The translations under genes were made by a program, and so were the position numbers. A stretch of 64,000 nucleotides of DNA from Fragilaria crotonensis (Eukaryota > Bacillariophyta > Fragilariophyceae > Fragilariales > Fragilariaceae). Shown here in pieces: positions 33,303 to 61,986 of the stretch. Where the stretch lies: NCBI GenBank assembly GCA_022925895.1, contig JAKSYS010000009.1:62001-126000 (forward strand). The letters run 5' to 3'. Position 1 is the stretch's first letter, and each line of letters begins with the position of its first letter. The notes below the pieces were generated by a model, which saw only the letters and a list, made by a program, of their open reading frames with translations, was not told the origin of the DNA and made no database searches.

Positions 33303-34407
33303 GATGGAGCTGGGTGTTGCACCATGTCAGATTGCAAGAGCTACTGATACGACACAGAGACACCGGTTACTGGTTGTTTTTCAGTTGTTATCATTGAACG
33401 AATTGGCGATGCGAACAGAAAAGCTGGACTTCAACTTTGCGACAGTATTCAGTTCTGACAGTAACCTGTAGAAAAGTCCACAATTGCAGTAATGGGTTTG
33501 GACAGTAGTCCGTGGGTACAGGGTACAATGTGACTCCATGGAGATGGTCGTACTGGTTACTAGTACGCTACGTACCCAGAATAGATGAATCGCTGTTCAA
33601 GTGTCGCGGAAGTCCCGTTTTCTTCCGAAGATCACACTGATGTTCATGGAGTTCGCATTGACAAATATTTGGGTTCACGTCCGGTAAATGGCGGGAACGA
33701 GGGTTTCTGTAACGAGTGGTGTACATTGTATATACATGTAACACTAATAGGAGCCGATGTGTGGGCATACATGCAACTATTTGAATTATCATTTTTTGAT
33801 TGCTATCATCCAAGGCTGAACGGAAAACTAATGACCATTCCTATTAGAGGGTGTAAGACTCTTTTATAAGGGACTGTATGTGCCCCAACCTTGAAGTGCC
33901 CCTTTGACATACGCATGATTGAGCTCTGGAAGTAAGTTTATGTGTTGAAATCTTCTCTCTTTTTATACATATACGAGGTACACATATACTCGGAGTAGAG
34001 TCACTATGCTGGCCTCGAGAGAGTGGTCTACTAGAGAGAGCATACTGGTACAGGTATCATACAGTCACAACGTGTACTGGTGTACTGGTGTACTGGTAGT
34101 CCGCAATAGACCCCAAACCCCCCAAACCGCCAGTCATGCGGTGTTATTCGTATGAATAGGAGTTTAAGTACTCCAGTACGAGGTAGTAGGTAATACGAGC
34201 ATCATGTACTGGAGTTGTACTGCACTAAAACAAAAGTAAGCGCACCCAACGAGACTCAGATAACGCTCGTCAGTTCAATTGACGAGCGGTTGATTGCATC
34301 TTGGTGCCATAAAATTGCTGTCATTGGAGGCTTGCTTTGTTGCCGGGCTTGACCCACTGTCTCATCGGCTCGTTAACTTCTCATCTCTACCCCCCAACAT
34401 AGTGATC
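33303..34407. promoter_or_regulatory. divergent upstream region of copine and dynamin-like genes
   Basis: No gene is supported. GTAC palindromes cluster at 33500-33580 and 34020-34230, the latter including three head-to-tail copies of GTACTGGT. Promoters for both flanking genes must lie here. Confidence 0.5.
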
Positions 34408-36621
34408 ATGTCCTCAGACTTTCCAATTTCATTAGCTGGCAACGCCGACTTGCGCGAGTTCATGGAACTCGTTACATCGACAACACACGTGAAGAGATAC
34501 ATAAAATTGCCCATGATTTGTGTTATGGGAGACACATCGAGCGGAAAATCGTCGCTCCTCTCGGCCTTGAGCATGGTGCAATTTCCGAGTTCTCATGAAT
34601 TGACAACAAGATGCCCGATCCTCCTGCAAATGACGCACTCGAATGAGGCGAGGGCGACTGTTTCGATTCAATGGAACGAAAAGAACAATGCCGTCCAATT
34701 CGAACCAGTTGACGTCTGTGACATGACTCTACTTCCCGGAGCTATCATCGATGCGCAAAATTTGATTCTGCAACAAACCAAGAAGGAAGTGGCTTTCGAT
34801 GTCATTTGCGTATCTGTTTATGGACCTCAGTGCTTGGATTTGACTCTACTCGACCTACCAGGCTTGGCTCGGGCTCGGGCTTCCCACGAAAGTGAATCAC
34901 TCGTTGAGGACATCGATATGCTGCTGCAGTCCTACCTTCAAAATCCCCGTTGCATCATTTTAGCCGTACTCCCCGCTAACGTTGATTTCCACAATTCGCA
35001 GATATTGGGCTTGGCGCAAACTGTCGATCCCGAGTTCAAGCGAACTATTCCGGTCCTCACGAAACCTGATTTGATTGATGCTGGCGCTGAGGATCAAGTT
35101 CTTCAATTGCTGCTTGGAAAAAAGATGGACTTGGGATTCCATATGTGCAAGGGCCGTGGCCAGGCAGCCCTGGATCAGGGCCAGTCGCTGGAAGAATCAC
35201 TGCAAGACGAAGCAGATTTTTTCCTTGCTGAAGAACCATGGAGAAGTGTCACAGATCGCAGCCTCTTTGGAACGGTGCAGTTACGCCAGAAACTGGGTGA
35301 GGTTCAAATGGCATTGATTCGCGAGACGATCCCGGACATTCTCAAGGAAGTACACTCGAAACAACAGTATGCCTTCTCGACGTTAGTGGCCATGGGTAAT
35401 CTGCACCAAACGTCAGCTGACAAAAGACGGTATTACCAAGATTATACTCAATCTTTTGTCTCGAGCTTAAAGGCAACGCTGAGTGGAAAGGGTAAGAAGT
35501 CCAAGCAACCATCGGCTGCAGCCAAGTTGCATGATGTATGCAATGTTTTCATGCAATCTATTCGAGAGGGATCGCTTGGTACTATCAAAGCGATCGTCGA
35601 AGGCGCTCAAGTGTTGGTGACATCAGCGAAAGGCGATGTGCAGGGTGAAGTGGTGCATGTCGATCATGAATACGCTTGTGTTGATTATGTGAATGAAGCT
35701 GATAAGCAAAGTGATGTTTTATTTGAATACGTTGGGTACGTCGCTAAGGAGCCGCTCGAGGAGAATGATGTCTGGTCAGACGGCACGAAGGTGTTTATTG
35801 CGCGTCAAGGCAATACCTTCGACCTTTTGAAACTTATTCCGCTCAACCGGATTCAGACGGATCCGTCGTGGTTGTTATCGAAGATAGCCGACAACCGCAC
35901 GGATGATCTGCCGTGCTTTTTGAATGTCGATATCTTCAAGTCCATTGTGTCGGACTTTATCGAAGAAGACTGGAGACCACATTGCACGATGCTCATTAAT
36001 CAGACTTCGGATATTGTCATGGCGGCAGTATCCGAGTCACTACAAAAGCCAAATGAAATCGAGCGCTTTCCGAAGCTCCATGCCTTGATTAAGCAAAAGA
36101 GCAGTCGCGGTGCACGAGCGCTCTTGATCGAAGCCGAAAAACAAGTGAATGATCACTTGGCCATGGAAAAGCACCCCTACACGCAAGACGATGTGTTGCT
36201 AGCGAATATTGCAGCTGCGCGGCATCGTGGCCTTAAGCGAGAATTGGAGGTTGCACTCCGGTTGGACCAAGAAGATGTTAATTTTGATACAGCAGCTATT
36301 CAAACAATTATGGAAGGCGTTTTCGAGAGGAATCGCCGTAAGTCGGTCGAATTACACATGGCGGAAGATATGGAGATTGTGCTAGAGTCGTATGGTAAGA
36401 TAGCAACCAAGCGCGTCATTGATCGATCCCCCATGATTTGTTGGGAAGTCTTTCGATCGCTGGTTCCGACCATCCAGGACACGTTGTGGAATATAACCGA
36501 TGCCGAGTTGGAACAAGCTATGGCTGATACTGAAGAATTCACCGAGAAGCACAAGGCTCTGACGGAAGAGCTCGAAGAGATGAATAAAGCACTCAATATA
36601 TTTCAATCCCTGTTGCTGTAA
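34408..36621 (+). CDS. dynamin-like GTPase
   Basis: The 737-residue protein starts at ATG 34408; an open frame reaching back to 34294 has no ATG. GTPase motifs are intact: G1 GDTSSGKSS (41-49), the G2 threonines in ELTTRCP, G3 DLPG (149-152) and G4 TKPD (218-221). A helical stalk region follows and the C-terminus is a GTPase effector domain (about 650-730) rich in ELEEM-type heptads. There is no pleckstrin-homology domain, proline-rich tail or TM segment, as in Mx/DRP-type members. Residues about 400-480 form an acidic beta-rich insert that repeats a GEVVHVDHEYACVDYV-like pattern, resembling an SH3/Tudor-type barrel and not part of canonical dynamins. Probable role: membrane remodelling or scission; the organelle is unknown. 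Confidence 0.85.
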   Translation: MSSDFPISLAGNADLREFMELVTSTTHVKRYIKLPMICVMGDTSSGKSSLLSALSMVQFPSSHELTTRCPILLQMTHSNEARATVSIQWNEKNNAVQFEPVDVCDMTLLPGAIIDAQNLILQQTKKEVAFDVICVSVYGPQCLDLTLLDLPGLARARASHESESLVEDIDMLLQSYLQNPRCIILAVLPANVDFHNSQILGLAQTVDPEFKRTIPVLTKPDLIDAGAEDQVLQLLLGKKMDLGFHMCKGRGQAALDQGQSLEESLQDEADFFLAEEPWRSVTDRSLFGTVQLRQKLGEVQMALIRETIPDILKEVHSKQQYAFSTLVAMGNLHQTSADKRRYYQDYTQSFVSSLKATLSGKGKKSKQPSAAAKLHDVCNVFMQSIREGSLGTIKAIVEGAQVLVTSAKGDVQGEVVHVDHEYACVDYVNEADKQSDVLFEYVGYVAKEPLEENDVWSDGTKVFIARQGNTFDLLKLIPLNRIQTDPSWLLSKIADNRTDDLPCFLNVDIFKSIVSDFIEEDWRPHCTMLINQTSDIVMAAVSESLQKPNEIERFPKLHALIKQKSSRGARALLIEAEKQVNDHLAMEKHPYTQDDVLLANIAAARHRGLKRELEVALRLDQEDVNFDTAAIQTIMEGVFERNRRKSVELHMAEDMEIVLESYGKIATKRVIDRSPMICWEVFRSLVPTIQDTLWNITDAELEQAMADTEEFTEKHKALTEELEEMNKALNIFQSLLL

Positions 36622-37105: not shown

Positions 37106-39097
37106 ATGTGGAGGGTGAAGTGTTCATCTCCCTCGCGACTCTTGGTGAATGCTGCTGTGCGGCATCAATTTCTGTGTCTCCCTCGAAAACGACCCTTCCG
37201 TCATCGATGGCATAGTTCAGGCGCCTTGAGCGGGGGCGGAGGGCTGATTCCCGACGTTAAGACGAACATTGCATCACGGGAACTGCAGATGCGAATCGCT
37301 CGGACGTTGTTCCAATACGTGTGGCCACAAGACTCAATGCAATCCAAGGAAGATCAAGAACGGAAATATCGGGTGAAACTTAGTTTAGGCTTGATGGTAG
37401 CCGGGAAGATGGTCACGATCCAAGTGCCATTTCTCTTCAAGTATCTCGTGGACTCCATGTCTTCTGAAGCTTTGTTGGCGCAGGATCACGTTGTATCGCT
37501 AAGTGGTATGCCATTGGCACTCGTGTTGGGATATGGTATCTCCAGGATCACCATGTCTGGGATGAACGAATATCGCAATGCCGTCTTTGCCCACGTCGCT
37601 CAAGATGCCATTCGCAAAGTCGGGCGTAAGGTCTTTGATCATGTTCATCAGCTTGATATGCAGTATCATCTATCTCGGAATACTGGGCAACTGTCGCGAG
37701 TTTTGGATCGAGGAAACCGATCCATTTCCTTCATCCTCAACGCCATGGTCTTCAATATCGCACCCACTCTGCTGGAAGTAGGCGTTGTTGCTGGTTTGAT
37801 GGGATATCACTGTGGCCCAGCCCACGCCGGTGTCGTGCTGGGCACACTTGCCACGTATATGGGATTTACCGTTGGCGTGACGCAGTGGCGGACCAAGTTT
37901 CGTCGCGACATGAATCGCTTGGAGAATGAAGCCAGTGGTCGTGTTGTGGATTCGCTACTCAATTACGAAACTGTTCAGTACTTCAACAACGCCGAGTACG
38001 AAGGGAATAGGTATGAAGAGTCGCTCCGAAACTATCAGACTGCTGCGCTGCAAGGCCAGCAATCCCTTTCCCTGCTCAACTTTGGCCAAGTCGCCATCTT
38101 TTCCGTCGGTCTTACGAGCGTCATGTACTTGACTGGGCAACAAATAATAGCAGGAACGGCGACGGTTGGCGATTTGGTTTTGGTAAATGGGCTTCTGTTT
38201 CAACTCAGTATCCCACTCAATTTCATTGGCACGGTCTACCGAGAAGTGCGACAGTCGTTGATTGACATGGAACAAATGTTCAATCTTTTGGATACCAAAC
38301 CTGGCATCCAAGACGCTCGTGATGTGATTGAGTACTCGCCTGCTGACATGGGGACCAAGCTCACGTTTACGAATGTTGAATTTGCGTATCCTGGTCTCGT
38401 GCGTCCGATCTTGAAAGGGATCACATTCGACGTGGAAGAGGGAAAAACAGTCGCGTTGGTTGGTTCGTCCGGCAGTGGGAAGAGTTCATTGCTTCGCCTG
38501 TTATACAGATTCTACGAGCCCAACGCTGGCTCCATTGCTATTGGAGGTCATGATCTAAAGGACATGTCGATTCATTCCGTAAGGAAAGCTATTGCAGTTG
38601 TTCCGCAGGATACCGTTCTGTTTCATGAGTCCATCAAATACAACATTCAATACGGTAATTTGGATGCTCCGTGGGATCAAGTCATTGAAGCGGCAAAGAA
38701 AGCTCGTATTCACGATACCATCATGAGCTTTCCCGACAAGTACGATACCATTGTGGGTGAACGAGGACTGAAGTTAAGCGGCGGGGAGAAGCAACGAGTC
38801 GCCATAGCTCGGGCCATCCTCAAGAACGCACCCATTCTATTGTGCGACGAGCCAACGTCGTCGTTGGATGGCGAGACCGAATACGACATTATGTCCAACC
38901 TCAAGGAAGTTGGTCGGAACACAACCACCGTCATCATCGCACACAGGTTGTCGACGATACAAGATTGTGACGAGATCATCGTTGTTGGAGATGGCAGTGT
39001 GGTGGAGCGTGGCACCCATGACGAGCTGGTTGCGAAAGGTGGGCGATACAGTGAACTGTTGGCAATTCAAGAACAACAGCCGGAGATCAATGATTAG
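37106..39097 (+). CDS. ATM1: mitochondrial ABC transporter, ATM1/ABCB7 type
   Basis: A half-transporter of the inner mitochondrial membrane that exports a glutathione-linked sulphur compound needed for cytosolic iron-sulphur protein assembly. The frame is intact at 663 residues. The first 40 are Arg/Ser-rich with almost no acid, a mitochondrial presequence. The six-span membrane domain carries family-typical stretches such as [12 protein letters not shown] and [14 protein letters not shown]. The ATPase has Walker [10 protein letters not shown] (from 453), signature LSGGEKQR (from 557), Walker [13 protein letters not shown] (about 577) and H-loop IAHRLST. A short piece of this gene, around [17 protein letters not shown], recurs in degenerate form at about 41330 and 47085. 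Confidence 0.93.
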
Positions 39098-39527
39098 CAG
39101 GTTTCACCAGTCTTTCTTTAAATTAAAAGGAAAATGATCTTAAGCCTCTACTCGCATCGTGAGGTGGACGCAGAGGCCGTGCCCAGGAATGGAGGACTGT
39201 TCGGCGTCGCCTTCGACGAGAATTGAAATGCCACTCAAGAGCGCTACAGTCACTGTGAGTATGTACTGGCATCACAACATGTTGCCGTTGAGGCTGTGTC
39301 CAGGATGCGAAGCCTATGATTTCTGTGGGCTTATGGTCTATAACACGATTTCCCTCTGTGATCATTCTCTTAAAGTGGTGACTTGAAGGTTGCAGGTGAT
39401 TCTTATCATACACATAAAACTTACTGGCTAGAATTCTACCATACGTACCATCGCATATTCGATACATGCACATTGAATACATTTGTACTTTTGAATATGT
39501 GTATTCCATAATGATTACACATGACGC
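39098..39527. repeat. intergenic, carrying copy 1 of a local repeat
   Basis: The segment 39256-39305 (GTATGTACTGGCATCA, then ATGTTGCCGTTGAGGCTG) recurs at about 41399-41447 and, weaker, at 47325-47400. No gene is supported. Confidence 0.6.
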
Positions 39528-39824
39528 ATGAAATTTAAAAGAGTCTCCTGCTACCCATGGACAACAATTGCGAGCACCATGTTCAATGTTCAGATTCAGT
39601 CACGCTTTGTTTTCATGGGTTTGTACGTTTGTGCTGCACTCTCTGGTGACGCGCGAACCAATTCAGTCATGCAGAGTGCTCATAATCGACAACTCCCTAC
39701 TCTAGAACTGACTCTGGGAAACCAACAAGAGGGAAGCCCGTCAAGGACGACATCGCAAACCAAATTCGAAGGAGTTGGTGAAGAATCCGACTCTTCTACA
39801 TATCTTCTCCTAGATCCAAAGTAA
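39528..39824 (+). other. upstream open frame overlapping the next start codon
   Basis: A 98-codon frame from ATG 39528 ends at TAATG, so its stop shares a base with ATG 39824 of the ubiquitin-oxygenase-RING gene. Residues 18-44 are hydrophobic, like a signal sequence. The corresponding leader of copy 2 (45334-45560) is similar at DNA level but does not keep this frame. It may be a regulatory upstream frame in the leader or chance. Confidence 0.25.
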
Positions 39825-41068
39825 TGCGACGATACTTCGAGTCACCGGGCCAACAGCGCCACGCATCGTCAACTCATGATGTCAATCGCCTCATGCGCAT
39901 TTTTGTCAAGACTCTTACCGGCAAGACCATCACTCTTGATGCTGCAGCCACTGACTCCATGGAGAATGTCAAGGCCAAGATTCAGGACAAGGAAGGAATT
40001 CCACCGGATCAGCAGCGCTTGATTTTTGAAGGAAAGCAGCTCGAGGACGGCCGCACCCTCATGAATTACGGCATCAAGGAGGACTCCATTTTGCACTTGG
40101 TACTCCGATTGCGGGGAATGATTAGCACATTTACGTACAACGACACCTCCGACCCTTTGGTACGCTTTCTTATGCTGACTGACGATGAAAGAGAAGTAGC
40201 TGCTATTCCACGAGATGAGCTTCGTGCTTTGGCAGAGAAGGAGCACGTGAACGCTTTCAGCAACTTCGTTTTCAAGCCAGAGTGCAGGATTCTTTGCGTC
40301 GAACAGTGTCGGTTTTTATGTTCATTTCTCGACTTTATGTGGACAAGCACTGCGCAAGATGCTGCCAGGGACCGTGTTGATATGCGCCTGGTGATTGATG
40401 GCAACACATTTGTGCAGCTGTTGAGTTGCCTCGACCCTGTTGTTTCTTCAATGCAGCAATCCAGCGCTCTTGTTCGGAACTTGCACAACGAGTACCTCAA
40501 AGTACGCCGTGCTACGGGAGAACAATCCGGCATTGATGAATCCAAACTTGCTCTACGAATGACATGCGGACCCACCAATGCGTGTATCAACTTCCATTGT
40601 GACGGGGATTACGCTACCAGTACGTCCCAAATCGCATTAAACTGTCCATCTGAGTACAGGGGCGGCCGTTTGTGTTTCTTTGTCAGTGATGCTCTCCATG
40701 TCTTGGAACGCCCTGTCGGATCCATCACTCAGCACCCTAGAAGTGTGCTTCACGGCGTCACTGCACTGACGGAAGGCACGCGAAAGAGCTTGTTCGTTGT
40801 CGATCGAACCAATGGTCTCGGAGAAGGTGGGGTCATTCAAGTACACAGTGATCAAGTGCAACTCTTCTTGGCGCAGAAGATCTCTCGGCCACATGAGGTC
40901 GACATCAATACAATGCCGACATGTGTCGTGTGTTGTGAGCGAGCAGCGGACCATGTGGTTTTGCCATGTGGACATCTCTGTCTTTGTTCTATCTGTGAAT
41001 CAAGGGTCATCACGAGCTGTCCAATTTGTCGGTCGAATTTTCAACGGAAACAACGTGTGTACATGTAA
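39824..41068 (+). CDS. ubiquitin-like / 2OG-Fe(II) oxygenase / RING fusion, copy 1
   Basis: The 414-residue protein joins three modules. Residues 24-99 are strikingly close to ubiquitin ([48 protein letters not shown]). The C-terminus reads LRLRGM instead of the di-glycine, so it should not be cut off by deubiquitinases. The middle has a 2-oxoglutarate Fe(II) dioxygenase core: H258-C-D260 in FHCDG, the strand RGGRLCFFV, distal H310 in VLHGVT and R320 as likely 2OG-binding residue. Residues 367-406 form a C3HC4 RING ([18 protein letters not shown]), implying an E3 ligase. I infer a hydroxylase that modifies or recognises a client and drives its ubiquitination. Substrate and location are unknown; no TM segment or signal lies inside the frame. 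Confidence 0.85.
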
Positions 41069-41570
41069 CGGCAAAGCGTCGATGGGCAAGGAGTCTGCAT
41101 ATAGACGTGAAGCGTCTAGACAACATCAGCTGTTGTGTTAATGGTGAAGACGACGTTGATTATTGCTCACAAACAGACTTTCGTCGTTAGGTACACGACG
41201 CCGTGTTTTGAACGAAACGATTTGCGTATTTCATATCTTCAGTAGTTGCCTACGTCAACAGCTCTACTTTGAGATTTCCAAAAAACGAATCCGTCTGTGA
41301 ATGCACACCTTGCAGAACTTACGAGTAGATGCCATTCTCGAGGTCGGGCGACAGGCTTTTGATCATGTTCGCCAGCTAAAAACGCTGCATTTACTCTTAG
41401 TATGTACTAGAATCATTATATGTTGCCGTTGAGGCTGCGTCCAGAAAACTAAGAGCCCACGTTCTGTCACTTTCTGTGGAGTATACGCATCAAGCACACA
41501 CAAGTCGAGAACGCTCGCCACCGCCCTGTGCCTCGCAGAAGATTCGTTTCTCCTCGATGGAGTGCCAAGG
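41069..41570. repeat. 3' flank with ABC-transporter scrap and local repeat copy 2
   Basis: Sequence from 41070 matches the flank after copy 2 (CAAAGCGTC, GACAACATCAG, GCTCAC). At about 41330-41380, GATGCCATTCTCGAGGTCGG and CTTTTGATCATGTTCGCCAG resemble the ATM1-type gene at 37604-37655 with several differences. The local repeat follows at 41399-41447. Confidence 0.6.
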
Positions 41571-41807: not shown

Positions 41808-41940
41808 TGCTTTGATACTCGAGTACCCGGTTTATTCAAAACAACATTCCATCCACGGGTTTCTCTCAACACCTTTGTGTGCCTGTTTATCATCCTAATG
41901 CTATACATTCAACACACGCCAGCCCGTGATCTGCGGAGAA

Positions 41941-42423
41941 ATGTCATCTCGTGTTCTATCCTTCCAGCTCATGGCGAGGCCTCTCGCCGATGGCGATGTC
42001 CCTGTTTCCATCCAGGAAGCCAACATCGGCCCCTACAATGGCTTGACGATTGAACAATTTGGCTTCGCCGTTGACAGTAAAGGAGACATGGACGCCATAT
42101 TCTACCATTTTCAAAGATCAATGTTCCAAATTTCTGGGAACCATTTTGGTGAAGGGAGATTCCATTTCCGCAAGTTACTTTTTGGCGGCGCTGCCAGAAC
42201 TGGCCAAACGATCAAGGCTCGCGGATGCCGTTCTAAATCCGTCCATGGTGATGTGACATTCGCCAACGTGATGGAAACAAAATGGTTCACTTCGGCTCCC
42301 GACATCATCACCATCACCAGAGATACCACCGTCGCACACAAACTCATCAAGGGAGTCTATGTGGATTATGGTAAAATCCCAGATGTCACCATGAAGTTGG
42401 CCGTGGTGGCGCTCGTTGGCTAG
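41941..42423 (+). CDS. uncharacterised protein, about 160 residues
   Basis: The frame starts at ATG 41941 (an in-frame GTG at 41926 is less likely) and ends at TAG. Composition is that of a soluble globular protein with mixed charges and no signal or TM segment. No motif is recognised. It is followed by 530 bases of plain sequence before a fold-back element. It may be complete, or an exon. Confidence 0.4.
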   Translation: MSSRVLSFQLMARPLADGDVPVSIQEANIGPYNGLTIEQFGFAVDSKGDMDAIFYHFQRSMFQISGNHFGEGRFHFRKLLFGGAARTGQTIKARGCRSKSVHGDVTFANVMETKWFTSAPDIITITRDTTVAHKLIKGVYVDYGKIPDVTMKLAVVALVG

Positions 42424-44604: not shown

Positions 44605-45563
44605 TCCTCCTCTCTCTCGTCCACCAGCAGTCCATCACCTTGGTGCAGGTTGCAAGGAGCGAAGTTCTGGGTTACTGTGTAAATCCAGTACTATCTAGTA
44701 TCTAGTCTAAAGGTGATCTAACTAATGTATCATATGCATTATGCTTCCTGCACGGAGTTGCAACGTATTACGCTGCTACGGTACGGTGATTACACTTGCG
44801 GTCGTCACGTCAACAGGTCCAATTCTAGGCGGATCCTGCATACTTGTACGACGTATACTACTGGTACCAGGTACGTTGTACCTAAAATTCAGCAAACTGA
44901 ACGGGAAGATTCTGTTGTGCTTACATATACATGTGACCATACATACTGCTTTCAAATGTGACACGTACTTGTACTCTACACTCTACGACAATATGCATAG
45001 AGGGAATAGAGGGAGGAGAAGTCAGTCTCTATGTAACTTTGTACGTATCATCACCTTAAGTCCTAAAGATTTCCCAACTTCTCAAGAATCCACGGAGTCG
45101 CAGGTAACCAATTGCCCTGCAATGTCCCACAGAGGCAGTATGCTTATCTTCAATTTCGTTTATTCTGTAAACAAGGGAAAACGTGTGCATCGTCAAGATG
45201 TAGTAATACATAAGCTAGCACGTATCTTCACGGGCAATTTCAGAGATTCGAGCAGCCATCAATTTGATTCAATCTCTGCCAGTCGTGCTAGACTACAGTA
45301 TCAAAACATCAGATACTTTGTCTCCTTGGGTTCTTGTTCGTTTGTGCACTCGTCTCGTATTGCCAATTGTGTGATAAGCTCATAATCGAAAATTCTCTCT
45401 CCAGATCTGATTTCGAGAATCCAACAAGAGGAAACGCGTCAAGAACGAAATCACAAACCAAATATAACTTGCATTTCGCATCATTCATTCGACCTATTCG
45501 GATTCGAAGGCGGTGGTGAAGAATCCATCCCTTTTACGCATCTTCTCCAACTAGAACCAAGTT
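44605..45563. other. leader region of ubiquitin-oxygenase-RING copy 2
   Basis: 45380-45563 is similar to 39680-39823 before copy 1 (shared CCAACAAGAGG, CGTCAAG and ACAAACCAAAT words, and ATG in the equivalent position). The remaining upstream DNA has GTAC words at 44690-44880 and no gene. Confidence 0.55.
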
Positions 45564-46815
45564 ATGCAAAGTAGTAATCACTCTGAGGGCCAACCGCGGA
45601 AGCGCCGTGCATCGTCCTCTCATGATGTCGATCGCCCCATGCGCATTTTCATCAAGAATATGATAAATACAATGAATATCATCACTCTTGATGTTGAAGC
45701 CAGTGACTCCATCGAGAATGTCAAGACCATGATCCATGAAGTGTCGGGTTATTTTCCGGAATCGCAGCTTTTGTTCTTTAAGGGAACCAAGCTCGAGGAC
45801 AGCCGCAACCTTGTGTCTTACGGCATCAAGGAGGACTCCACCTTGCACTTGGTACTCGAATTGCGGGGAATGATTAGCACATTTAAATACAAGGACGCCT
45901 CCGATCCTTTGGTACGCTTTCTAATGCTGACCGACGATGAAAGAGAGGACGCTGCTGTTCCACTTGATGAACTTCGTGATATGGCACAGGAGGAGAACGC
46001 GAACCGTTTCAGTACCTTTGATTTCAGACCTGAGAGCAGGATTCTTTGTCTCATACAGTGTCGCCATTTGTGTTCATTTCTTGACTTTGTATGGACTAGG
46101 ACTGCGCATGACGCTAAGAGTGATCGAGTTGATATTCGCCTGGTGATTGACGACGACACGTTTGTGCAATTGTTGAGTTGTCTCGACCCTCTTGTTCCTT
46201 CAACGCATAAAGCCAGAACTCTTGTTCGGAACTTGCACATCGAGTATCGCAAAGTACCCGGTGCTAGGGGAAAAAGGTTCGGCAATGTTGCTTCCCAACT
46301 TGCTCTACGAATGACATGTGGACCCACAAATGCGTGCATCCACTTTCATTGTGACGGAGAATACGCCACCAGTACGTCCCAAATTGCATTAAACTGTCCA
46401 TCCGAGTACAAGGGTGGCCGTTTGTGTTTCTTTGTCAATGACGCTCTCCACATCTTGGAGCGCCCTCTCGGATCCATCACTCAGCACGCTGCAGGAGTGC
46501 TTCATGGCGTCACTGCACTTACAGAAGGCACCCGAAAGAGCTTGTTCGTTGTCGATCAAACTAATGGTCTCGGAGAAGGTGGGGTCATTCAAGTGCGCAG
46601 CGATCTAGTTCAGCTCTTCTTGGCGCATCAGGTCTCTCGGCCAAATGCAAACGACATCAATGCTAAGCGGACATGCGTTGTGTGCTATGAGCGTGAAGCG
46701 GACCATGTGATGTTGCCATGTGGACACATGTCTTTGTTCTGCTTGTAAGTCGGGGGTCATCACGAGATGTCCGATGTGCCGATCGAAGTTTCAACGTAAA
46801 CAGCGTATATACTAG
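45564..46815 (+). CDS. ubiquitin-like / 2OG-Fe(II) oxygenase / RING fusion, copy 2
   Basis: Paralogue of the gene at 39824. The oxygenase is strongly conserved, with [28 protein letters not shown] and the same spacing. The ubiquitin-like part has diverged heavily (IKNMINTMNIITLD, ELRGM) and most ubiquitin lysines are gone. The RING opens normally (CVVC, LPCGHM). A two-base loss at about 46730 then gives TAA at 46746-46748, removing the last four metal ligands. The other frame still encodes the rest (CLCSACKSG, CPMCRSKF) to TAG 46815. As written, the protein lacks a working RING, leaving a degenerate ubiquitin fold plus a probably active oxygenase. Either a real loss or a sequence error. Confidence 0.8.
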
Positions 46816-47482
46816 TCGTACATGTAGTTGCAAAGCGTCAATGGGTGAGGAACCTTCATGTAGAAGAGAAACGCCACGACAACATCAGTTGCTGTGTGTT
46901 CCTGATGAAGACATCGTTGGAAATTGCTCACTAGTCGACTATCGATTTCGGTACTCGACGCCTTGTTGAGAATGAAACGATCTGCATATTGCATACCTTT
47001 TTTTGCTGCATTCATCATCAGCGCTTCCTTGAGATTGCCAGAAGACGAAATTCGTCCATGTACGCGCACGTTACAGGAGCTTGACGCCATTCGCAAGGTG
47101 AGGTTACGTTCACGGATTCGAATTCGGAAATCTTAAAGCAGGGCTTTTGATATAGGCAGCTACTAAAGATGTGTAATACGCAAATCGTTGCGATCTGGAG
47201 AAGGCGCCGATTGATGGAAACGAAAGTCTGTTTGTGAGCGTTTGACAGCGATGTCTTCACCGATAACAGACAGAAGTCGATGTCCCCATGTATGCTAGTT
47301 GAAACATCACTTTAAAAGGCTGCAGTAACTCTTGCAGTGCTGGCATCGTGTTTCTTTTGCCGTCGAGTTCGTGTCAAGCATCGACGAGCCTATGATCCCT
47401 CTGCTTTCGTCGTAAAAAAATCAAATTGTCAGAGAAGTGAAGTCACGTAGGCAGGAGCACTTGTTATTCGTCGCTCGTTGAA
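46816..47482. repeat. 3' flank of copy 2 with the same scrap and local repeat copy 3
   Basis: Aligns with the flank after copy 1 through CAAAGCGTC, GACAACATCAG, TTGAGATT and a GACGCCATTCGCAAGGT remnant of the ABC transporter at about 47083-47100. A degraded local repeat is at 47325-47400. No gene is supported. Confidence 0.55.
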
Positions 47483-53162: not shown

Positions 53163-56031
53163 CTACCGAGCAATGCTCATGGTCGTTGGTGGGGCAAGAA
53201 GCCTTGTGGGACCAGATGTCGACGCCCCATCCCGGAACAGATCGTCTAGCGCCTCCAAGAACATGTCAATGTCAACATGTAAACGGTCTCGTGTAGAATC
53301 GGCGGTATAATATAAATGATGGTATTCCGCCCACTGTGGAAACCCATATAGGTACATGTAGGTCTTGTAGCTCCCTCCTGCTTGAATATCTGTCTGGTTC
53401 GGTCGGACCAAAACTCCAACACCTTGGCACGACTTTGACAGGAGTCCGCCACAGGGAGCCACAGGATGTTCGCCAATCCGCTGCCATGCGGACCAATTGC
53501 AATGGTTGCTGATCGGAAGAGGTCAAACTGATGTTGCAAAGACATGGTGGAGCCATTTTCCTGTCCGTCAAAAATGACCAAGTGCTCCTTTCGCCCATGT
53601 TGGGCCATTTTGTCTCGTATCAAGTGGAGCAGAAATTTTTCATGATCTGGATCCATGGTTCGTCCATGGTGAGTATCCCGTCCTCCTCGAGTATAGTATA
53701 CTATGGTTTTCTGGTCTGTTTCAAAGTTCGGCTTCGGCAACACCCAATTGCGAAGCTGGTTGAAGCGGTCGATGATATGACGAGTTTTCGTCGGAGGTAA
53801 GCCTGACATGGACCCTGTAGACACTCGGTAGATTGTTCTTTCTTCTGCCCACACAACTCGTTCCGCCTCGAAGATCGGGTCGATGAATTGGAGACGCTTC
53901 CTGTCGCTTTCATTGTTGACAAGAATGAATTTAGTACTTTCAGGCATCACATGACGAGCATATGCGATAGACGGCAGGTGGTCATGCAAAAAGTGACCAT
54001 AGTTTCCAGGCCAGTGGGCCGTGTAGGTCACGTAGTCACCATCTGGCAAATCTACCATTGGGTATTCATCGTAGATCGTTGCGCGATCAGGGACAACGAA
54101 GGGTTGGTCGTAATCAAAGGCTTCTTCATCATTCCATATGCTCATTCGGACATTGGGTGGCATGATCGGAATTGCTTGCAACACTTCGTGAAACACCATG
54201 TAAGCATGTTCAGTCGCAGGGAGGGTCACGACACCTGGGTCATGTTCCTTTCGGACCATGTTTCGATATATGACCTGTAAGTCATAGTCAGCCCACAACT
54301 TCGATTGCTCCTCAGTATCATGTTGAAGATGAAGAGTTGGTGCATTCTTGCATCCAACGGCATCTTCTGTTGCCACGTCTGCATTAACTTTAGGAACAGT
54401 GAAGAGTAGCTTGTGCTTGTTCCAATCTTCTTCGTTCTGCCAGCTGTCAAAGAGGTCATATCGAATCCCTCTGAGGTCAGCAGAGGCAGCCCGGTTGATT
54501 TCGAGAAGCTGCTGTGAGGTTAAAGCGTTGACGGCTTCGTCAGACGGAGTCGTCTGTCTCTTGACGCCTTCAGGGTATCCCTCGTTGTCGAGAGCAACGT
54601 GTGCGGGGTCTCCTGGTAACCCAGCCAAGTTGACTGGCGGAATCTTACTCGCATCTATCACTTGCACCGTTGAATTTCCAACATAACCAACCATGGCTGC
54701 AGAAGGATTGTGTCAGAGAACAAGCTAGGGGTATCAACGCAGATGCTGTTGCGACAACCGGCACGTACCAAAGAAATCAGTAGCCTTCATGCTGCCAGGA
54801 TCGTCCAACACAACGGCATTATTCCCATTGAGAGGCATAGTGACCGCCGGGAAAAGGCAAGACGGAGAACGAGGAGGACAGATGAGAACTCGGGCGAGAG
54901 TCATTCGAGAGAAAGCGGCAGCCGTACTAGTGGCAATCTTGAATGAGATACCATCCTTGCCCTGGAATCCGTTCCCTAATAGATCGGGGAACAAAGACGA
55001 CAAGTTTTTCGCAAGCGCTTCTCCATATTCGTGACAGGCCTGTCCTGTTGGCAAGTAAGCCTTCGTGCACGCCGGACCGGCAAGTATGGAGATTGATGAA
55101 ACACTAATATGGTTTGGGATCACTGCCAGCACTTCCTCGAATTCCAAGCCAATGCTTGTGGGATCCAACCAATAGACTACTCCACTCTGTTCCTCCATTG
55201 GGGGCTTAGCGGTATTCGCCCATTCTAGAGCTAGCTTGTAGAGGCTCTAGATTTTGAGTTCAGAAGTGTGAGTTATCGGATTTTTGGTGAATGAACACAC
55301 TCCATCGAATTCTGAGCGTGACTTACTTGTCGAATCGGATCCAAGGCAATTCCAATGGTGGCGAGGCCTGCTTCGACGTTCGACTTTTCGTTCGAGCCTG
55401 AAAGTTGATCAACATTGATTTGTTCGGGCCAAGCAAAACAGTGATGGTAGCCATTGGCCTTGATACGAGACACTTCGACGTCTTGATCATAGCTCAGGAG
55501 GCAACGACGGCATTGCTGTTTGATGCGATCAACTCCCATACCAGGGGAATCGTGTGGCATAGGAATACTATCAATGGCCTGTTGTAATGTCGTAAAGTTC
55601 AACCAAGGAGAGAAATGAGTGGCTTTCAGCGTATGGTCGCAGTTGTGGCTGTATTGGATATCTGGAAGGAAGGCGGCAATCATACTTGAAGAAAACATTT
55701 CTAACAGTGACAGGTGTGGAGAACTCCAGTCGCTACAGATATCCTGATCCTCTTCTACAACCTTGAAGGCATGAAAGGGCAAGTCTCCGAGAATGGTCTC
55801 TTGACGAATCAGCTCCTGACACAGAGCGAGATAAAGAGGAACATTGGCATTCGACGGCTGCGGAATCGGGGGAACAGTAAGGACATCGTTGACACTCGTA
55901 AACGCATTCTTGATTACGGAGGTGTCACCTGACAGGCGACGTAATAGTCGACTCCCAATCTTCACATTGAGAAGAAGGCATGCAGCCACCAGGGCGTGGA
56001 GAGCAAGCACTAGTGTGCGTTTCTTTCCCAT
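53163..56031 (-). CDS. glycosyltransferase family 61 (DUF563), type II membrane protein
   Basis: Golgi glycosyltransferase in three exons. Exon 1 (56031-55327) starts MGKKRTLVLALHALVAACLL, a signal anchor, then a long stem with several Cys. Intron 1 (55326-55247, GTAAGT...CTAG) links PIRQ to SLYKLALEW. Intron 2 (54768-54697, GTACGT...GCAG) links ATDFF to AMVGYVG. Exon 3 carries GT61 motifs: HFLHDHLPS, VVYYTRGGR, FDLFRSAT and IGPHGSGLANILWLP. The frame shifts once at about 53395. The alternative frame gives the expected YLYGFPQWAEYHHLYY ending to 53163, whereas the uncorrected frame stops at 53246. About 900 residues is long for the family because of the stem. The sugar donor cannot be told from sequence; xylose or GlcNAc are known in relatives. 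Confidence 0.85.
54697..54768 (-). other. GT61 intron 2
   Basis: 72 bases, GTACGT donor and CTGCAG acceptor; joins codon TTT G|CC in frame. Confidence 0.7.
55247..55326 (-). other. GT61 intron 1
   Basis: 80 bases, GTAAGT donor and CTAG acceptor; phase 0 between CAA and AGC. Confidence 0.7.
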
Positions 56032-58385: not shown

Positions 58386-61300
58386 ATGCCTCTTGCAAGC
58401 TCCGCTTCCAAAGAAAGGTTGTCCTTGCCAGCGACGATCGACTCTACTACGAAGGTGACACGACCCAAGGCCATCAGGAGACGCCACAGCCTCCGAAGCA
58501 AACGTGACTCGTCGCCAGCGCCTGTTGGCAAGGAAAATGACAATGAAAACAAACATCATGCTAGAGCCACCAAGCATGCTCCCACAAGACCTGGGCCAAC
58601 ACCCTATTATTTGGTACGTTCCTTTCTTCGGAGCTGTTCAGAACTCCTGATTTCATGCTTCTGACAGCAACTGTGTCATTACGTTACGCCCTTCCTCGCA
58701 GGTTGCTGCCGAACGAGAAAGCAAAGGAGAGCATCCATACTCGCCGCGATTAACTCGATCTGCTCAGAAGAAGAAGCCTCTACTCCCTCCATTTGGTCAG
58801 ACGATTGAAAGGACCAGCAGCAGGGGTATTGCTATGTCGTTCTCGCCACCTGACCAGGAAGCCAACCGACGTCGCGAATCAGAAGAACTGGCCAGAAAAA
58901 AGGCTGATTTTGAGCAGCGCGTAAAGCGAGCGAAAGCTAGTGGGCGATACCTTGCATTCTCTCCTACGTCGGGAAGACCTTTGCAGAGTTTTGATGATGA
59001 CGAAGATGCCGGTAAGGACTATGAACTTGCTCGTCTGGTTGGCGGGCAACAAGAAGCGATTCAAAATCTAGAGGGGCAGATGAATCAGTTCTTGATCATG
59101 CAAACAAAATCTTTTGATGAGGGGAATAAGTCTGAGCAACTTGCAGGATTTCAAGCTACGAACGCCCATCTCACCGATGTTAACGCGCGACTTGAAGAGA
59201 CGATCGAACGAATCGAACGGGAGAAGCTGGACCTACAGGATCAAGTGGGAGAGATGAAAGGTCGGCTTCTGGTTGAAACGACTAAGCATGAAACTGAAAT
59301 CACCGTTGCAAAAAACGAGTCGCGCGCGATTCTAGCTGAAAAAGAGATGCTCAACGCCAAGTTCGAGGAGGCCAAGGAGCAATATCTAATCGAACGGACG
59401 CGAATGGAAGCTGAGCTCGACTCCCTGAAGCGAGAGTCTGACATTCGCCTTGAAGGTCTTGGTGAATCGAGAAAGGGGCTGGAAGAGGAGAAGCAAAAGC
59501 TCTATGCTCGAGTGGAAGAGCTTGAGATTAAACTGCTTCATTCCAAGGACCAATACACCGACATGAAGGCCACACAATCTAAGCTCTCCTCCGATAAAGA
59601 ACACCTCATTGACGCCAAGAATCGCTTAGAGAGTGACTTGGAGAAGATAGCGAGTGAGAAGCTATCACTCCAGCAACAAGTGTCAGGATTAAAGCATGAG
59701 CTACATCTCATTCAAACGAAAGTTTTACCAGACGGAGAGGCCAGGTACGACGCGGTTGTAAACGAGCTTGAAATGCAGAAAGAGGCAACCAATTCCGTGG
59801 AGGTGAAATGGAACGACAGTGTACGCCAGCTCGATGATATGAAGCGGAAAATGAATGATTTGGAAAAAGAAAAGGAAGAAGAACGAGTCAACTTCCAGAA
59901 ACTTAACGAAGACAGCGCGAAGGCGTTTGGAAAGCTGGAGCGTGAATCAGCTGAGAAAAATGCACTCATTGATGAACTGAAGAAGGAAATGGATGTTCTC
60001 GCTGCAGATCTCGAAGTTGAGCAACAGAATCGCCAAGCGTTGGCACAAGAACTGAAGCTACAAGGTGACGAAGCAAACAAAGCAATTGATGATCTAGAAG
60101 CTCAAGCAGACGACCTCGCTGCGGAAGTGGAACGCGAAAAGGGCCTTCGTGCTGAATTAAACACGAAACTCCAGAAAAAGGAAGCCGATATGACCGAAGC
60201 AGTCCAAGAGTTGCAGGCACAAGTTATTTCACTGAAGGACGAGGTTGAAGGCGAACGAATTCGTTGTCAACGTGCACAGGATAGCCTTAAGGAAAGCAAC
60301 ACTAATTGGGAAACGTCGTTTGCAGAGGTTAAGGCAGAAACAGAGCGCTTGGCAGCTGAGGTTGAAGACGGGGAGTGTCTTCGTAAGCAACTCGAAGAGC
60401 AGCTCAAGCAAAATAGAATCGATATGAGAGAGGCGGTGGAGGAGCTTCAGGCTCAAATTGAAACATTCGAAGATAAGCTAAGCCTGGCCGATGCGGACAA
60501 GACTCTGCTCGAAGAGAAGCTCGTGGTTGCTAGTTCGTGTATTGAGGAACTCACTGTTGCCAAGCAAGAGGCGCTCTGTCAGAAATCCGATGTCAAGAAA
60601 TGTTTGAGCGACAACGAGAAAAAGATTGAACAGATGGTGCAAACCATTGCATCTCTCAGAGATTCTTTGAGCAAGACTCAGTTGCAGCTTAAGGAAACTC
60701 AGGCAAAGCTCACTTCTTCCCGATTGGAATGCAATGACGCACACAGTCGGTTGGTGACCTTCGATGACCGCGAGGAAGAGTTATTCCGCAAACTTCGTGA
60801 GAGCGATCGTATTCGCCGTGATTTGCATGCGAAGGTCATGCAACTTAGCGGCAACATTCGAGTCTTTGTTCGTGTCAGGCCGGAGCTTCCAGGCGAGAAA
60901 GAAAAGGAATTGAAGCTACTGGATGTAGATCATTCGAACAACGCGAGAAAACGAAAGCACGCTGCAATTGAAGACGCTCCGTTCAAATTCCCTGGAATGT
61001 TTGACTGCAATGGTAACCCAGAGGCAGAAGACTTGTGCAAGAATCTCGTTGAGGTCACGGAGCCTCCCAAAGATCGGGGCGGATTGAAGGAACGCAAGAG
61101 AAAGTGGCGATTCGGCTTCGACAATGTGTTCCCTCCCTCTCAAGGTCAAGAGGAGATCTGGGAAGCTACTGAACCGTTAGTGCAGAGTGCCATCGATGGG
61201 TACAATGTTTGCATCTTTGCTTATGGTCAGACTGGCTCAGGAAAGACGTATACTATGCTCGGTGATCAATCGAACAAGGGCATTGTTTCCCGTGCAGTGG

Positions 61301-61986
61301 AAAAGTTATTCGAGTCAAAGTTGGAAATCGAAACACTGTCAAAAGGCAGGACATTGGTTTCCATAAGCGTGGAACTTCTCGAGATATACAACGAAAAGGT
61401 TCGAGACTTGTTGTCGACGAGCACTATTGAAGATCAGAACTTGAAGGTCAAAAGCAGCGATGTCGAAGGTAATGTGCTTGCCACGACATCCTCGACTGAG
61501 GAAGTGATGCAGATCTTGGAGATCGCCCAATCCAGGCGATGCGTTAAGTCGACCAATTCCAATGCATAGAGTTCTCGCAGTCACATGGTGTTTACAATCC
61601 ACTTTAATGTGACTGCCGATGGGGGCGTGAGTAGGAAGGGAAAGCTTCACGTCTGCGATTTGGCTGGAAGTGAGCGTCTTGACAAAAGTGGAGCTAATGC
61701 ATCTGTTGGAGGCTCACTGCTGCAAGAGACCAAATCAATTAATTCGTCGCTGAGTGTCCTCTCCAATGTGATTGAGAAGCTTCAACAGGGGAGTCAAAAT
61801 GTTCCCTTCCGGGAGTCCAAGTTGACAATGCTTCTTCAAAACAGCTTGGGTGGGAATTCAAAGACATTAGCAATTGTTTGCTGCAATCCACTGGCTTCTC
61901 ACTTCCACGAGAGTCTTTGCAGCTTGCGGTTTGCTGATAAAGTGAACAAGGTTGAACTGAAAGCCAGTTCAAATTTTAGTTGTTAA
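58386..61986 (+). CDS. kinesin-14 (C-terminal motor), one in-frame TAG
   Basis: Minus-end-directed microtubule motor of the KIFC/ncd class. Exon 1 (58386-58613) gives a basic Ser/Thr-rich head, possibly microtubule- or DNA-associated. An 88-base intron (GTACGT...CGCAG) follows. Residues about 120-785 are nearly continuous coiled coil. The neck LHAKVMQLSGNIRVF joins directly to the motor at about 790, which places it in class 14. P-loop GQTGSGKT is near 917, then switch I SSRSH and switch II DLAGSER. A TAG (61567-61569) sits in frame immediately before SSRSH where most kinesins have a variable residue. Everything after it is intact to 61986. CAG or another codon changed to TAG would explain it. 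As written, the motor is truncated and dead. Confidence 0.88.
58614..58701 (+). other. kinesin intron 1
   Basis: 88 bases, GTACGT donor, CCTCGCAG acceptor, phase 0 between TTG and GTT. Confidence 0.75.

What the first reader, a model, noticed from the sequence alone, without database searches (positions are those of the whole stretch)
39824..41068. Ubiquitin-like, 2OG-Fe(II) oxygenase and RING in one protein
Seen: an almost perfect ubiquitin module ending LRLRGM, an oxygenase core (H258-C-D260, H310, R320) and a C3HC4 RING in one 414-residue frame. Known: RING proteins are E3 ligases; prolyl hydroxylases can create degrons; VHL-type systems separate these steps into different proteins. Inference: one chain could hydroxylate a client and ubiquitinate it, or sense oxygen, iron or 2-oxoglutarate. 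The non-cleavable ubiquitin could recruit E2 or ubiquitin-binding partners, or tune RING activity. I know of no characterised protein with this order.
Basis: partly seen in the sequence, partly recalled or inferred. Interest (0 to 1): 0.85.

Follow-up and report, generated by a model that had tools for sequence, protein, structure and literature searches.

The report
Ubiquitin-oxygenase-RING fusion protein
A diatom-like alga carries a gene whose single protein joins a non-detachable ubiquitin, an iron- and 2-oxoglutarate-dependent hydroxylase and a RING ubiquitin ligase, so one molecule might both mark a client with oxygen and tag it for destruction, steps that better-known oxygen-sensing systems divide between separate proteins.

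Summary
Window 39824-41068 (+) is one open 414-codon frame with a ubiquitin domain (24-99), a 2OG-Fe(II) oxygenase domain (about 100-345) and a C3HC4 RING (366-414). Two paralogues lie on the same contig; one is complete, the other is frame-broken inside the RING. Pfam misses the oxygenase, but NCBIfam and PHROGs profiles, relatives in the same genome and a fold search support it, and the four proposed catalytic residues are invariant in the paralogues. Between paralogues the oxygenase core and RING show purifying selection (dN/dS about 0.2). The ubiquitin has Met at position 76 in all three copies, so it should not be a cleavable ubiquitin; it is relaxed in both paralogues but slower and surface-intact in this copy. 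The RING is closest to IAP and MYLIP RINGs and keeps an Arg-x-Tyr/Phe tail that in cIAP1 clamps donor ubiquitin from the dimer partner. Best reading: a dimeric RING E3 coupled in cis to a protein hydroxylase, with the fixed ubiquitin acting like the UbΔGG that stimulates such RINGs through the E2 backside. Catalysis, substrate and coupling are inferred. Nine library searches showed no description of it; no other eukaryote genome could be searched.

The parts
39824..41068 (+). Uninterrupted frame, 414 aa: N-tail, ubiquitin, 2OG-Fe(II) oxygenase, RING
39824..39892 (+). N-terminal tail, residues 1-23, no sign of constraint between paralogues
   Evidence: dN/dS 0.66 to 1.8 over 23 codons; complete paralogue has Ile at residue 24, so its start should be upstream of the ubiquitin
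39893..40120 (+). Ubiquitin domain, residues 24-99, ending LRLRGM; K48 kept, K63 to E, G76 to M; L8, I44, H68, V70 kept
   Evidence: Pfam PF00240 E 7.5e-28; comparison with genomic ubiquitin
40121..40858 (+). 2OG-Fe(II) oxygenase domain with N-terminal helical part, residues 100-345
   Evidence: AF2 pLDDT 74.3, pTM 0.75; Foldseek; profiles
40595..40603 (+). H258-C259-D260, predicted iron ligands H258 and D260
   Evidence: H258 and D260 invariant in 15 of 15 rows of alignment A6
40751..40753 (+). H310, predicted third iron ligand
   Evidence: invariant in 15 of 15 rows of A6
40781..40783 (+). R320, predicted 2OG carboxylate ligand
   Evidence: invariant in 5 of 5 rows of A3; not invariant in the wider A6, which includes four canonical P4H-like rows
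40919..41065 (+). C3HC4 RING, residues 366-414: C367, C370, C382, H384, C388, C391, C399, C402; linchpin-position R403 (recalled role); tail R411-V-Y413
   Evidence: PF13920; closest solved RINGs BIRC3, MYLIP, BIRC2, XIAP; residue list
45564..46748 (+). Second paralogue (L003), 70% identical, frame broken inside the RING
46681..46812 (+). Out-of-frame RING remnant of that paralogue, 57% identical to residues 371-413 with one stop
   Evidence: G000:C12:108681-108812
39764..41315 (+). Extent of the duplicated segment (79% identical at nucleotide level to 45502-47076), gene plus short flanks

Best explanation
A RING-type E3 ubiquitin ligase with an IAP/MYLIP-like RING, probably working as a RING dimer, fused in cis to an iron- and 2OG-dependent protein hydroxylase and to a permanently attached ubiquitin that cannot be conjugated. 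Shown by sequence: one frame, three domains, intact catalytic and zinc-binding residues, purifying selection on oxygenase core and RING. Inferred: the RING works with a UBE2D-type E2~Ub (a UBE2D-like gene is in the genome); the tail R411-x-Y413 of one subunit packs on the donor ubiquitin of the other, as R614 and F616 do in cIAP1; the fixed ubiquitin, which keeps Leu8-Ile44-Val70 but lacks Gly76, acts like the UbΔGG used in vitro, docking on the back of the E2 and raising RING activity; the oxygenase domain recruits and hydroxylates a client (or the ligase itself), so ubiquitination depends on O2, Fe(II) and 2OG.
For: Domains and frame. Oxygenase: NCBIfam PKHD models E 8.5e-5 and 3.2e-5, PHROG 61 E 1.9e-6 in L002, L008 homology E 2e-13 pairwise and 2.4e-15 with the three-paralogue profile over 163 ORFs, five-sequence profile against the PDB: 11 of 12 matches at E up to 10 are 2OG enzymes, best 5.4e-9; Foldseek: the 50 listed of 502 PDB matches at E up to 0.001 are all P4H/PHD/PKHD-type. 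Selection: dN/dS core 0.19-0.21 in all three pairs, RING 0.16 between complete copies. RING tail: aligned by HMMER to BIRC3, MYLIP and XIAP through the aromatic residue; the complete paralogue has R-V-F at the same place. cIAP1 mechanism, UbΔGG stimulation of cIAP1 and XIAP: passages of PMC6349121. Ubiquitin joined to a RING stimulates it: passages of PMC8897509, an engineered Ark2C fusion in which the ubiquitin sits on the RING rather than the E2 backside. UBE2D-like E2 with the CSAGP segment. Precedent for a protist prolyl hydroxylase fused to the next enzyme of its pathway (PHYa-Gnt1): passage of PMC6437050.
Against: No expression, biochemical or substrate evidence. Pfam does not recognise the oxygenase; NCBIfam matches are far below cut-off; the three-paralogue profile alone matches PDB 2OG enzymes only at E 0.28 or worse, L008 alone at 0.25 or worse, the four-sequence profile at 0.022, and profile-profile comparison with canonical oxygenases of the genome was poor (probability 0.5% and 15.8%). 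The model behind the fold match was built on an alignment with four canonical P4H-like rows and other oxygenase relatives; listed TM-scores by query length are 0.43-0.51 with rmsd 5.9-14.6 A. The ubiquitin is not demonstrably constrained between paralogues (dN/dS 0.66-0.93, intervals include 1), and both paralogues lose parts of the Ile44 surface. One of three copies has lost an intact RING. The tail Arg is shared with BIRC3 but is Lys in XIAP and His in MYLIP. The UBE2D-like E2 has HCN where its best PDB match has HPN, and whether it is the partner is unknown. Use of the backside site here is analogy only.
Confidence: 0.4

Rival explanations
1. The oxygenase domain is not a client-modifying enzyme but a sensor or self-modifying switch: O2, Fe(II) or 2OG occupancy or autohydroxylation changes RING activity or stability.
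For: The proposed catalytic residues are kept, the core is under strong constraint, and oxygenase and RING are joined by a short stretch (345-365) without clear constraint.
Against: Nothing specific; described relatives act on separate proteins (HIF, Skp1 and EF-Tu cases in PMC6437050 passages).
Confidence: 0.2
2. The ubiquitin domain is a docking module (proteasome or ubiquitin-receptor binding, as in Rad23- or Parkin-type UBLs, recalled), delivering the ligase to the proteasome rather than stimulating the E2.
For: Best NCBIfam match is Rad23 through its N-terminal UBL (E 2.3e-10); Ile44 surface kept in this copy; missing Gly76 fits a stable UBL.
Against: The Rad23 match is 40 bits against a cut-off of 207 and covers only the ubiquitin part, as any ubiquitin might; no UBA domain was found by Pfam.
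Confidence: 0.2
3. The ubiquitin is a relic or passive solubility tag left from a capture event; function rests on oxygenase plus RING.
For: dN/dS between paralogues 0.66, 0.87, 0.93, intervals including 1; 20 and 27 differences beyond the six shared ones in L002 and L003.
Against: Over the longer span it was constrained: synonymous difference to genomic Ub-L40 is saturated (pS 0.78) with pN only 0.14 for this copy, although part of that constraint lies on the ubiquitin-gene lineage; and this copy evolves slower than both others (2 against 15, p 0.002; 4 against 24, p 0.0002).
Confidence: 0.2
4. The frame is a non-functional duplicate or an artefact that joins separate genes.
For: One of three copies is frame-broken; no transcript seen.
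Against: Two complete copies with dS about 0.33 keep the same uninterrupted frame and show purifying selection in oxygenase core and RING.
Confidence: 0.04

Closest known systems
IAP-family RINGs (cIAP1/2, XIAP) and MYLIP
   Same: RING sequence closest among solved structures (E 1.7e-7 to 2e-6), RING at the extreme C-terminus of this protein, Arg-x-aromatic tail as in cIAP1
   Different: No BIR domain was found in the protein by Pfam; fused to oxygenase and ubiquitin instead
PKHD-type hydroxylases (YbiX/PiuC), lysyl hydroxylases (LH3 and the 6ax6 enzyme), bacterial and HIF prolyl hydroxylases
   Same: HxD...H...R set and predicted fold
   Different: Only 11-20% identical in the listed fold alignments; those enzymes carry no RING or ubiquitin (recalled)
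VHL-HIF-PHD oxygen sensing
   Same: Hydroxylation and ubiquitination logically paired
   Different: There the hydroxylase and the ligase are separate proteins (recalled); here they are one chain, and protists are said to have PHDs but lack HIFs (PMC6437050 passage)
Protist PHYa-Gnt1 fusions (Skp1 modification)
   Same: A prolyl hydroxylase fused to the enzyme for the next step (PMC6437050 passage)
   Different: Next step is glycosylation, not ubiquitination
Engineered Ub-Ark2C fusion; natural UBL-RING proteins such as Parkin
   Same: Ubiquitin or UBL in the same chain as a RING (Parkin recalled)
   Different: The Ark2C fusion is artificial and of a monomeric RING; Parkin is an RBR ligase (recalled); neither has an oxygenase (recalled)

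Membership tests
C3HC4 RING E3 ligase, dimeric IAP type | Eight zinc ligands in C3HC4 order | tested here: met
   PF13920 over cut-off; ligands C367 C370 C382 H384 C388 C391 C399 C402 (one search list, positions assigned by the alignments)
C3HC4 RING E3 ligase, dimeric IAP type | C-terminal tail with Phe/Tyr (and Arg in cIAP1) that contacts donor ubiquitin | tested here: met
   R411-V-Y413, and R-V-F in L002; role in cIAP1 from PMC6349121 passages; residue present, role not tested
C3HC4 RING E3 ligase, dimeric IAP type | E2 binding, dimerisation and ubiquitin transfer | not testable with these tools
   needs protein
IAP protein family | BIR domain | tested here: not met
   no BIR match in Pfam at E up to 0.1; so an IAP-like RING, not an IAP
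2OG-Fe(II) oxygenase superfamily | HxD...H iron triad and downstream Arg | tested here: met
2OG-Fe(II) oxygenase superfamily | Profile match | tested here: met
   NCBIfam E 8.5e-5 and PHROGs E 0.021 (1.9e-6 in L002), below NCBIfam's curated cut-offs; none in Pfam
2OG-Fe(II) oxygenase superfamily | Double-stranded beta-helix fold | tested here: met
   predicted only; the alignment included canonical members
2OG-Fe(II) oxygenase superfamily | 2OG-coupled oxidation | not testable with these tools
   needs protein
HIF-type prolyl hydroxylase (EGLN/PHD) | Closer relationship to PHDs than to other 2OG hydroxylases | tested here: inconclusive
   by sequence lysyl hydroxylases and PKHD enzymes rank first; by fold a bacterial P4H, PKHD and PHD2 are mixed
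Ubiquitin (conjugable) | C-terminal Gly75-Gly76 | tested here: not met
   Gly-Met here and in L003, Arg-Met in L002; a ubiquitin-derived domain, not a ubiquitin precursor

The most novel reading that the evidence does not exclude
A self-contained 'hydroxylate-then-ubiquitinate' enzyme: a single dimeric RING ligase that marks its own client with an O2/Fe(II)/2OG-dependent hydroxyl group and ubiquitinates it, kept switched on by its own non-conjugable ubiquitin sitting on the E2 backside: a one-protein counterpart of PHD plus VHL that arose independently in an alga.
Probability: 0.2. Interest if true: 0.92.

Novelty: new variant of a known kind. Interest (0 to 1): 0.62.

Why it matters
If the domains work together, protein hydroxylation and ubiquitination, which HIF and Skp1 pathways spread over several proteins, would be coupled in one polypeptide, giving a minimal, directly assayable oxygen-, iron- or 2OG-gated E3. 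The natural ubiquitin-RING chain would also test whether the backside-ubiquitin activation seen in vitro has been built in by evolution, and the three paralogues with graded decay of the ubiquitin surface are a ready-made comparison.

Tried and rejected
Tried without result: whole-protein AF2 on three paralogues gave pLDDT 33.5 and was not used. Scans with the oxygenase core found no relative in viral contigs or in prokaryote genomes, nor did a viral scan with part of L014; these collections hold no eukaryote genomes, so absence says nothing about other algae. Profile-profile comparison with 19 canonical oxygenases of the same genome was weak. The three-row profile and L008 alone against the PDB were not significant. 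A RING search in a wrong frame was repeated correctly. Of 25 RING matches in the genome six loci were fetched, two of them copies of this gene; the other four showed no oxygenase (best E 0.49); the rest were not looked at. Literature: nine searches aimed at this architecture; searches returned no papers, searches returned 9, 2, 2 and 6 papers, whose titles and abstract beginnings do not describe it. All required several terms together, so they are narrow. In PMC2691004 and PMC11354881 a word search found no 'dioxygenase' or 'hydroxylase'. Left aside: the upstream 98-codon frame (39528-39824) as part of the protein; its stop overlaps the start codon; whether that frame is kept upstream of the paralogues was not tested. 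Rejected: recent capture from the genome's Ub-L40 gene; synonymous sites are saturated. Other ubiquitin genes were not compared.

Full report
WHAT IS THERE. The stretch 39824-41068 on the + strand is one open frame of 414 codons ending in a stop. Pfam finds ubiquitin (E 7.5e-28) and a C3HC4 RING (E 5.3e-11) and nothing between. The window lies in a 62.1-Mb genome in 881 contigs, contig C12. That genome has 61 matches to the light-harvesting family PF00504, and the best one is closest to the PDB chains FCPI-7 and Lhcr11, the latter named a fucoxanthin chlorophyll a/c-binding protein; that those entries are from a diatom is recalled. So the source is probably a diatom or a close relative.

THREE COPIES. 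A search of the own genome with the protein gives 13 match rows; four of them are this gene family, all on contig C12 and on the same strand: the window copy, L003 at window 45564-46748 (70% identical) with a separate row for its RING remnant, and L002 about 54 kb downstream of the window copy, outside the window (78%). The unit shared with the neighbour is the gene plus short flanks, 79% identical over about 1.58 kb. L002 has all three domains (ubiquitin and RING by Pfam; oxygenase by NCBIfam and PHROGs). L003 keeps the ubiquitin and oxygenase parts but its frame breaks inside the RING; the rest of the RING is recognisable out of frame with a stop.

SELECTION. Nei-Gojobori dN/dS between the paralogues is 0.20, 0.19 and 0.21 for the oxygenase core 241-345 in the three pairs, and 0.16 for the RING between the two complete copies (0.21 and 0.27 over the 21 RING codons kept for comparison with L003). 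It is 0.34, 0.47 and 0.76 for 100-240, 0.66, 0.87 and 0.93 for ubiquitin, and 1.8, 0.66 and 1.8 for the first 23 codons. Bootstrap intervals exclude 1 for the core in three of three pairs, for the RING in two of three, and for ubiquitin in none. So oxygenase and RING are what selection has held since the duplications, which is the best evidence here that the fusion is a working unit.

THE OXYGENASE. NCBIfam's PKHD-type dioxygenase models match best at residues 269-323, E 8.5e-5 (3.2e-5 in L002), far under their curated cut-offs, and PHROG 61 (2OG-Fe(II) oxygenase) matches L002 at 1.9e-6 and this copy at 0.021. The profile of the three paralogues finds a second oxygenase gene, present as two near-identical loci on C79 (L008, L009) and C81 (L010), at 2.4e-15, and L014 at 4e-4, among 163 ORFs; BLASTP of L008 with this protein gives 37% over 93 residues, E 2e-13. 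L008 itself has only a sub-threshold Pfam 2OG-FeII_Oxy match (E 0.038) and L014 none. A profile of these five sequences finds 12 PDB sequences at E up to 10, of which 11 are 2OG hydroxylases: the lysyl hydroxylase 6ax6 (mimiviral by recall) 5.4e-9, LH3 2e-7, PiuC 4e-4. Leaving out L014 the best is PiuC at 0.022 and 5 of 7 matches are 2OG enzymes; with the three paralogues alone 4 of 5, best 0.28; with L008 alone 5 of 6, best 0.25. Profile-profile comparison with 19 canonical oxygenases of the genome gave probability 0.5% for the three paralogues and 15.8% for the five. In a 15-row alignment with relatives from the same genome, H258, D260, H310 and two glycines are invariant. AF2 on that alignment gives pLDDT 74.3 and pTM 0.75, and the 50 listed PDB matches (of 502 at E up to 0.001) are all prolyl hydroxylases, PKHD enzymes or PHDs, best 2.2e-9; among viral predicted structures the best named matches are 2OG enzymes too. 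Four rows of the alignment were canonical P4H-like proteins, which pulls the model towards that fold; TM-scores by query length are 0.43-0.51 and rmsd values are large (5.9-14.6 A). Taken together the assignment is firm as to superfamily and candidate catalytic residues, open as to substrate residue.

THE RING. Residues 363-414 match, among 27 solved sequences at E up to 0.01, BIRC3 (1.7e-7), MYLIP, BIRC2 and XIAP best, and the HMMER alignments to BIRC3, MYLIP and XIAP run through the C-terminal aromatic residue. In cIAP1 the tail of one subunit of the dimer contacts the donor ubiquitin held by the other, through Arg614 and Phe616, and F616H is defective; BIRC7, RNF4 and MDM2-MDMX have Phe or Tyr there (passages of PMC6349121). 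Here the residues are Arg411 and Tyr413, and Arg and Phe in L002; the Arg aligns with Arg in BIRC3 but with Lys in XIAP and His in MYLIP. An E2 of the UBE2D type, with the CSAGP segment that holds the backside serine (position recalled), is present in the genome; it has HCN where its best PDB match has HPN.

THE UBIQUITIN. Compared with the genome's Ub-L40 ubiquitin, all three copies share Q2R, N60G, Q62K, K63E, E64D and G76M; this copy has 7 further differences, L002 20 and L003 27. Gly76 is lost in all, so the domain should be neither conjugable nor released by ordinary deubiquitinases (inference). This copy keeps L8, R42, I44, K48, H68 and V70; L002 has L8F, R42C and V70L, L003 L8M, R42L, I44F, K48T and R72E. 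Against genomic ubiquitin, synonymous sites are saturated (pS 0.78) while pN is 0.14 here, 0.22 in L002 and 0.31 in L003; in relative-rate counts this copy has changed less than both (2 against 15, p 0.002; 4 against 24, p 0.0002). The synonymous counts point the same way but are too small to judge (0 against 4, 0 against 3), so a lower mutation or conversion rate in this copy is not excluded. Reading: the fused ubiquitin is old, was under constraint, and has been released in the two other copies.

MECHANISM. The most economical proposal for the ubiquitin comes from in vitro work: UbΔGG, which cannot be charged, binds the back of UbcH5B and stimulates cIAP1 and XIAP RINGs (passages of PMC6349121). 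Joining ubiquitin to the Ark2C RING in one chain gives rapid discharge, there through a site on the RING (passages of PMC8897509), which is a second possible mode. A ubiquitin without Gly76, with its Ile44 surface (importance of that surface recalled), tethered to an IAP-like RING is the natural equivalent. The oxygenase, placed where a substrate-binding domain could sit, is proposed to select and hydroxylate a client. Many protist genes for the Skp1 prolyl hydroxylase PHYa are fused to Gnt1-like glycosyltransferase regions, the next step (passage of PMC6437050), which makes a fusion of consecutive steps plausible. None of these functional steps is shown.

NOVELTY. Each module is known; the order ubiquitin, 2OG oxygenase, RING in one chain was not seen in the listings of nine searches of the paper library aimed at it (one search failed on a search word; one search was about RING tails). 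That library lacks most subscription papers, and no protein sequence database was on hand. No eukaryote genome but the window's own could be searched, so how widespread it is remains open. I therefore rate it a new variant of a known kind (RING E3), with a more radical reading kept open.

Noticed in passing
window 41196-41282 with 47123-47209, and 41136-41184 with 47220-47268: Downstream flank of the gene is present in inverted orientation about 6 kb away, besides the direct copy that follows the L003 paralogue; may bear on how the cluster arose.
   Followed up: partly
window 39230-39312 and 41371-41453: An 83-nt repeat lies on both sides of the gene (76% identical).
   Followed up: no
window 41926-42423 (+): A 165-aa frame with a weak match to EPSP synthase (E 8e-4, below the curated cut-off); perhaps a fragment or exon of a shikimate-pathway gene.
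   Followed up: no
window 34294-36621, 37106-39097, 53246-54694, 58834-61569: Neighbours: dynamin-like GTPase, ABC transporter (mitochondrial Atm1 type by recall), glycosyltransferase 61, frame ending in a kinesin motor domain.
   Followed up: no
L007, 117-923: Another ubiquitin fusion in this genome: a divergent ubiquitin ending LRLRGG followed by a CxxC-containing C-terminal part with no Pfam match at E up to 0.01.
   Followed up: no
L008/L009 and L010 (G000:C79, C81): The closest oxygenase relative has an N-terminus resembling a signal sequence and lies beside a frame that looks like a copia-type pol fragment (recalled resemblances); two loci 99% identical.
   Followed up: no
G000: PF13640 (2OG-FeII_Oxy_3) gives 53 matches, 50 marked over the cut-off (three of these only with neighbours): a large oxygenase repertoire.
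   Followed up: partly
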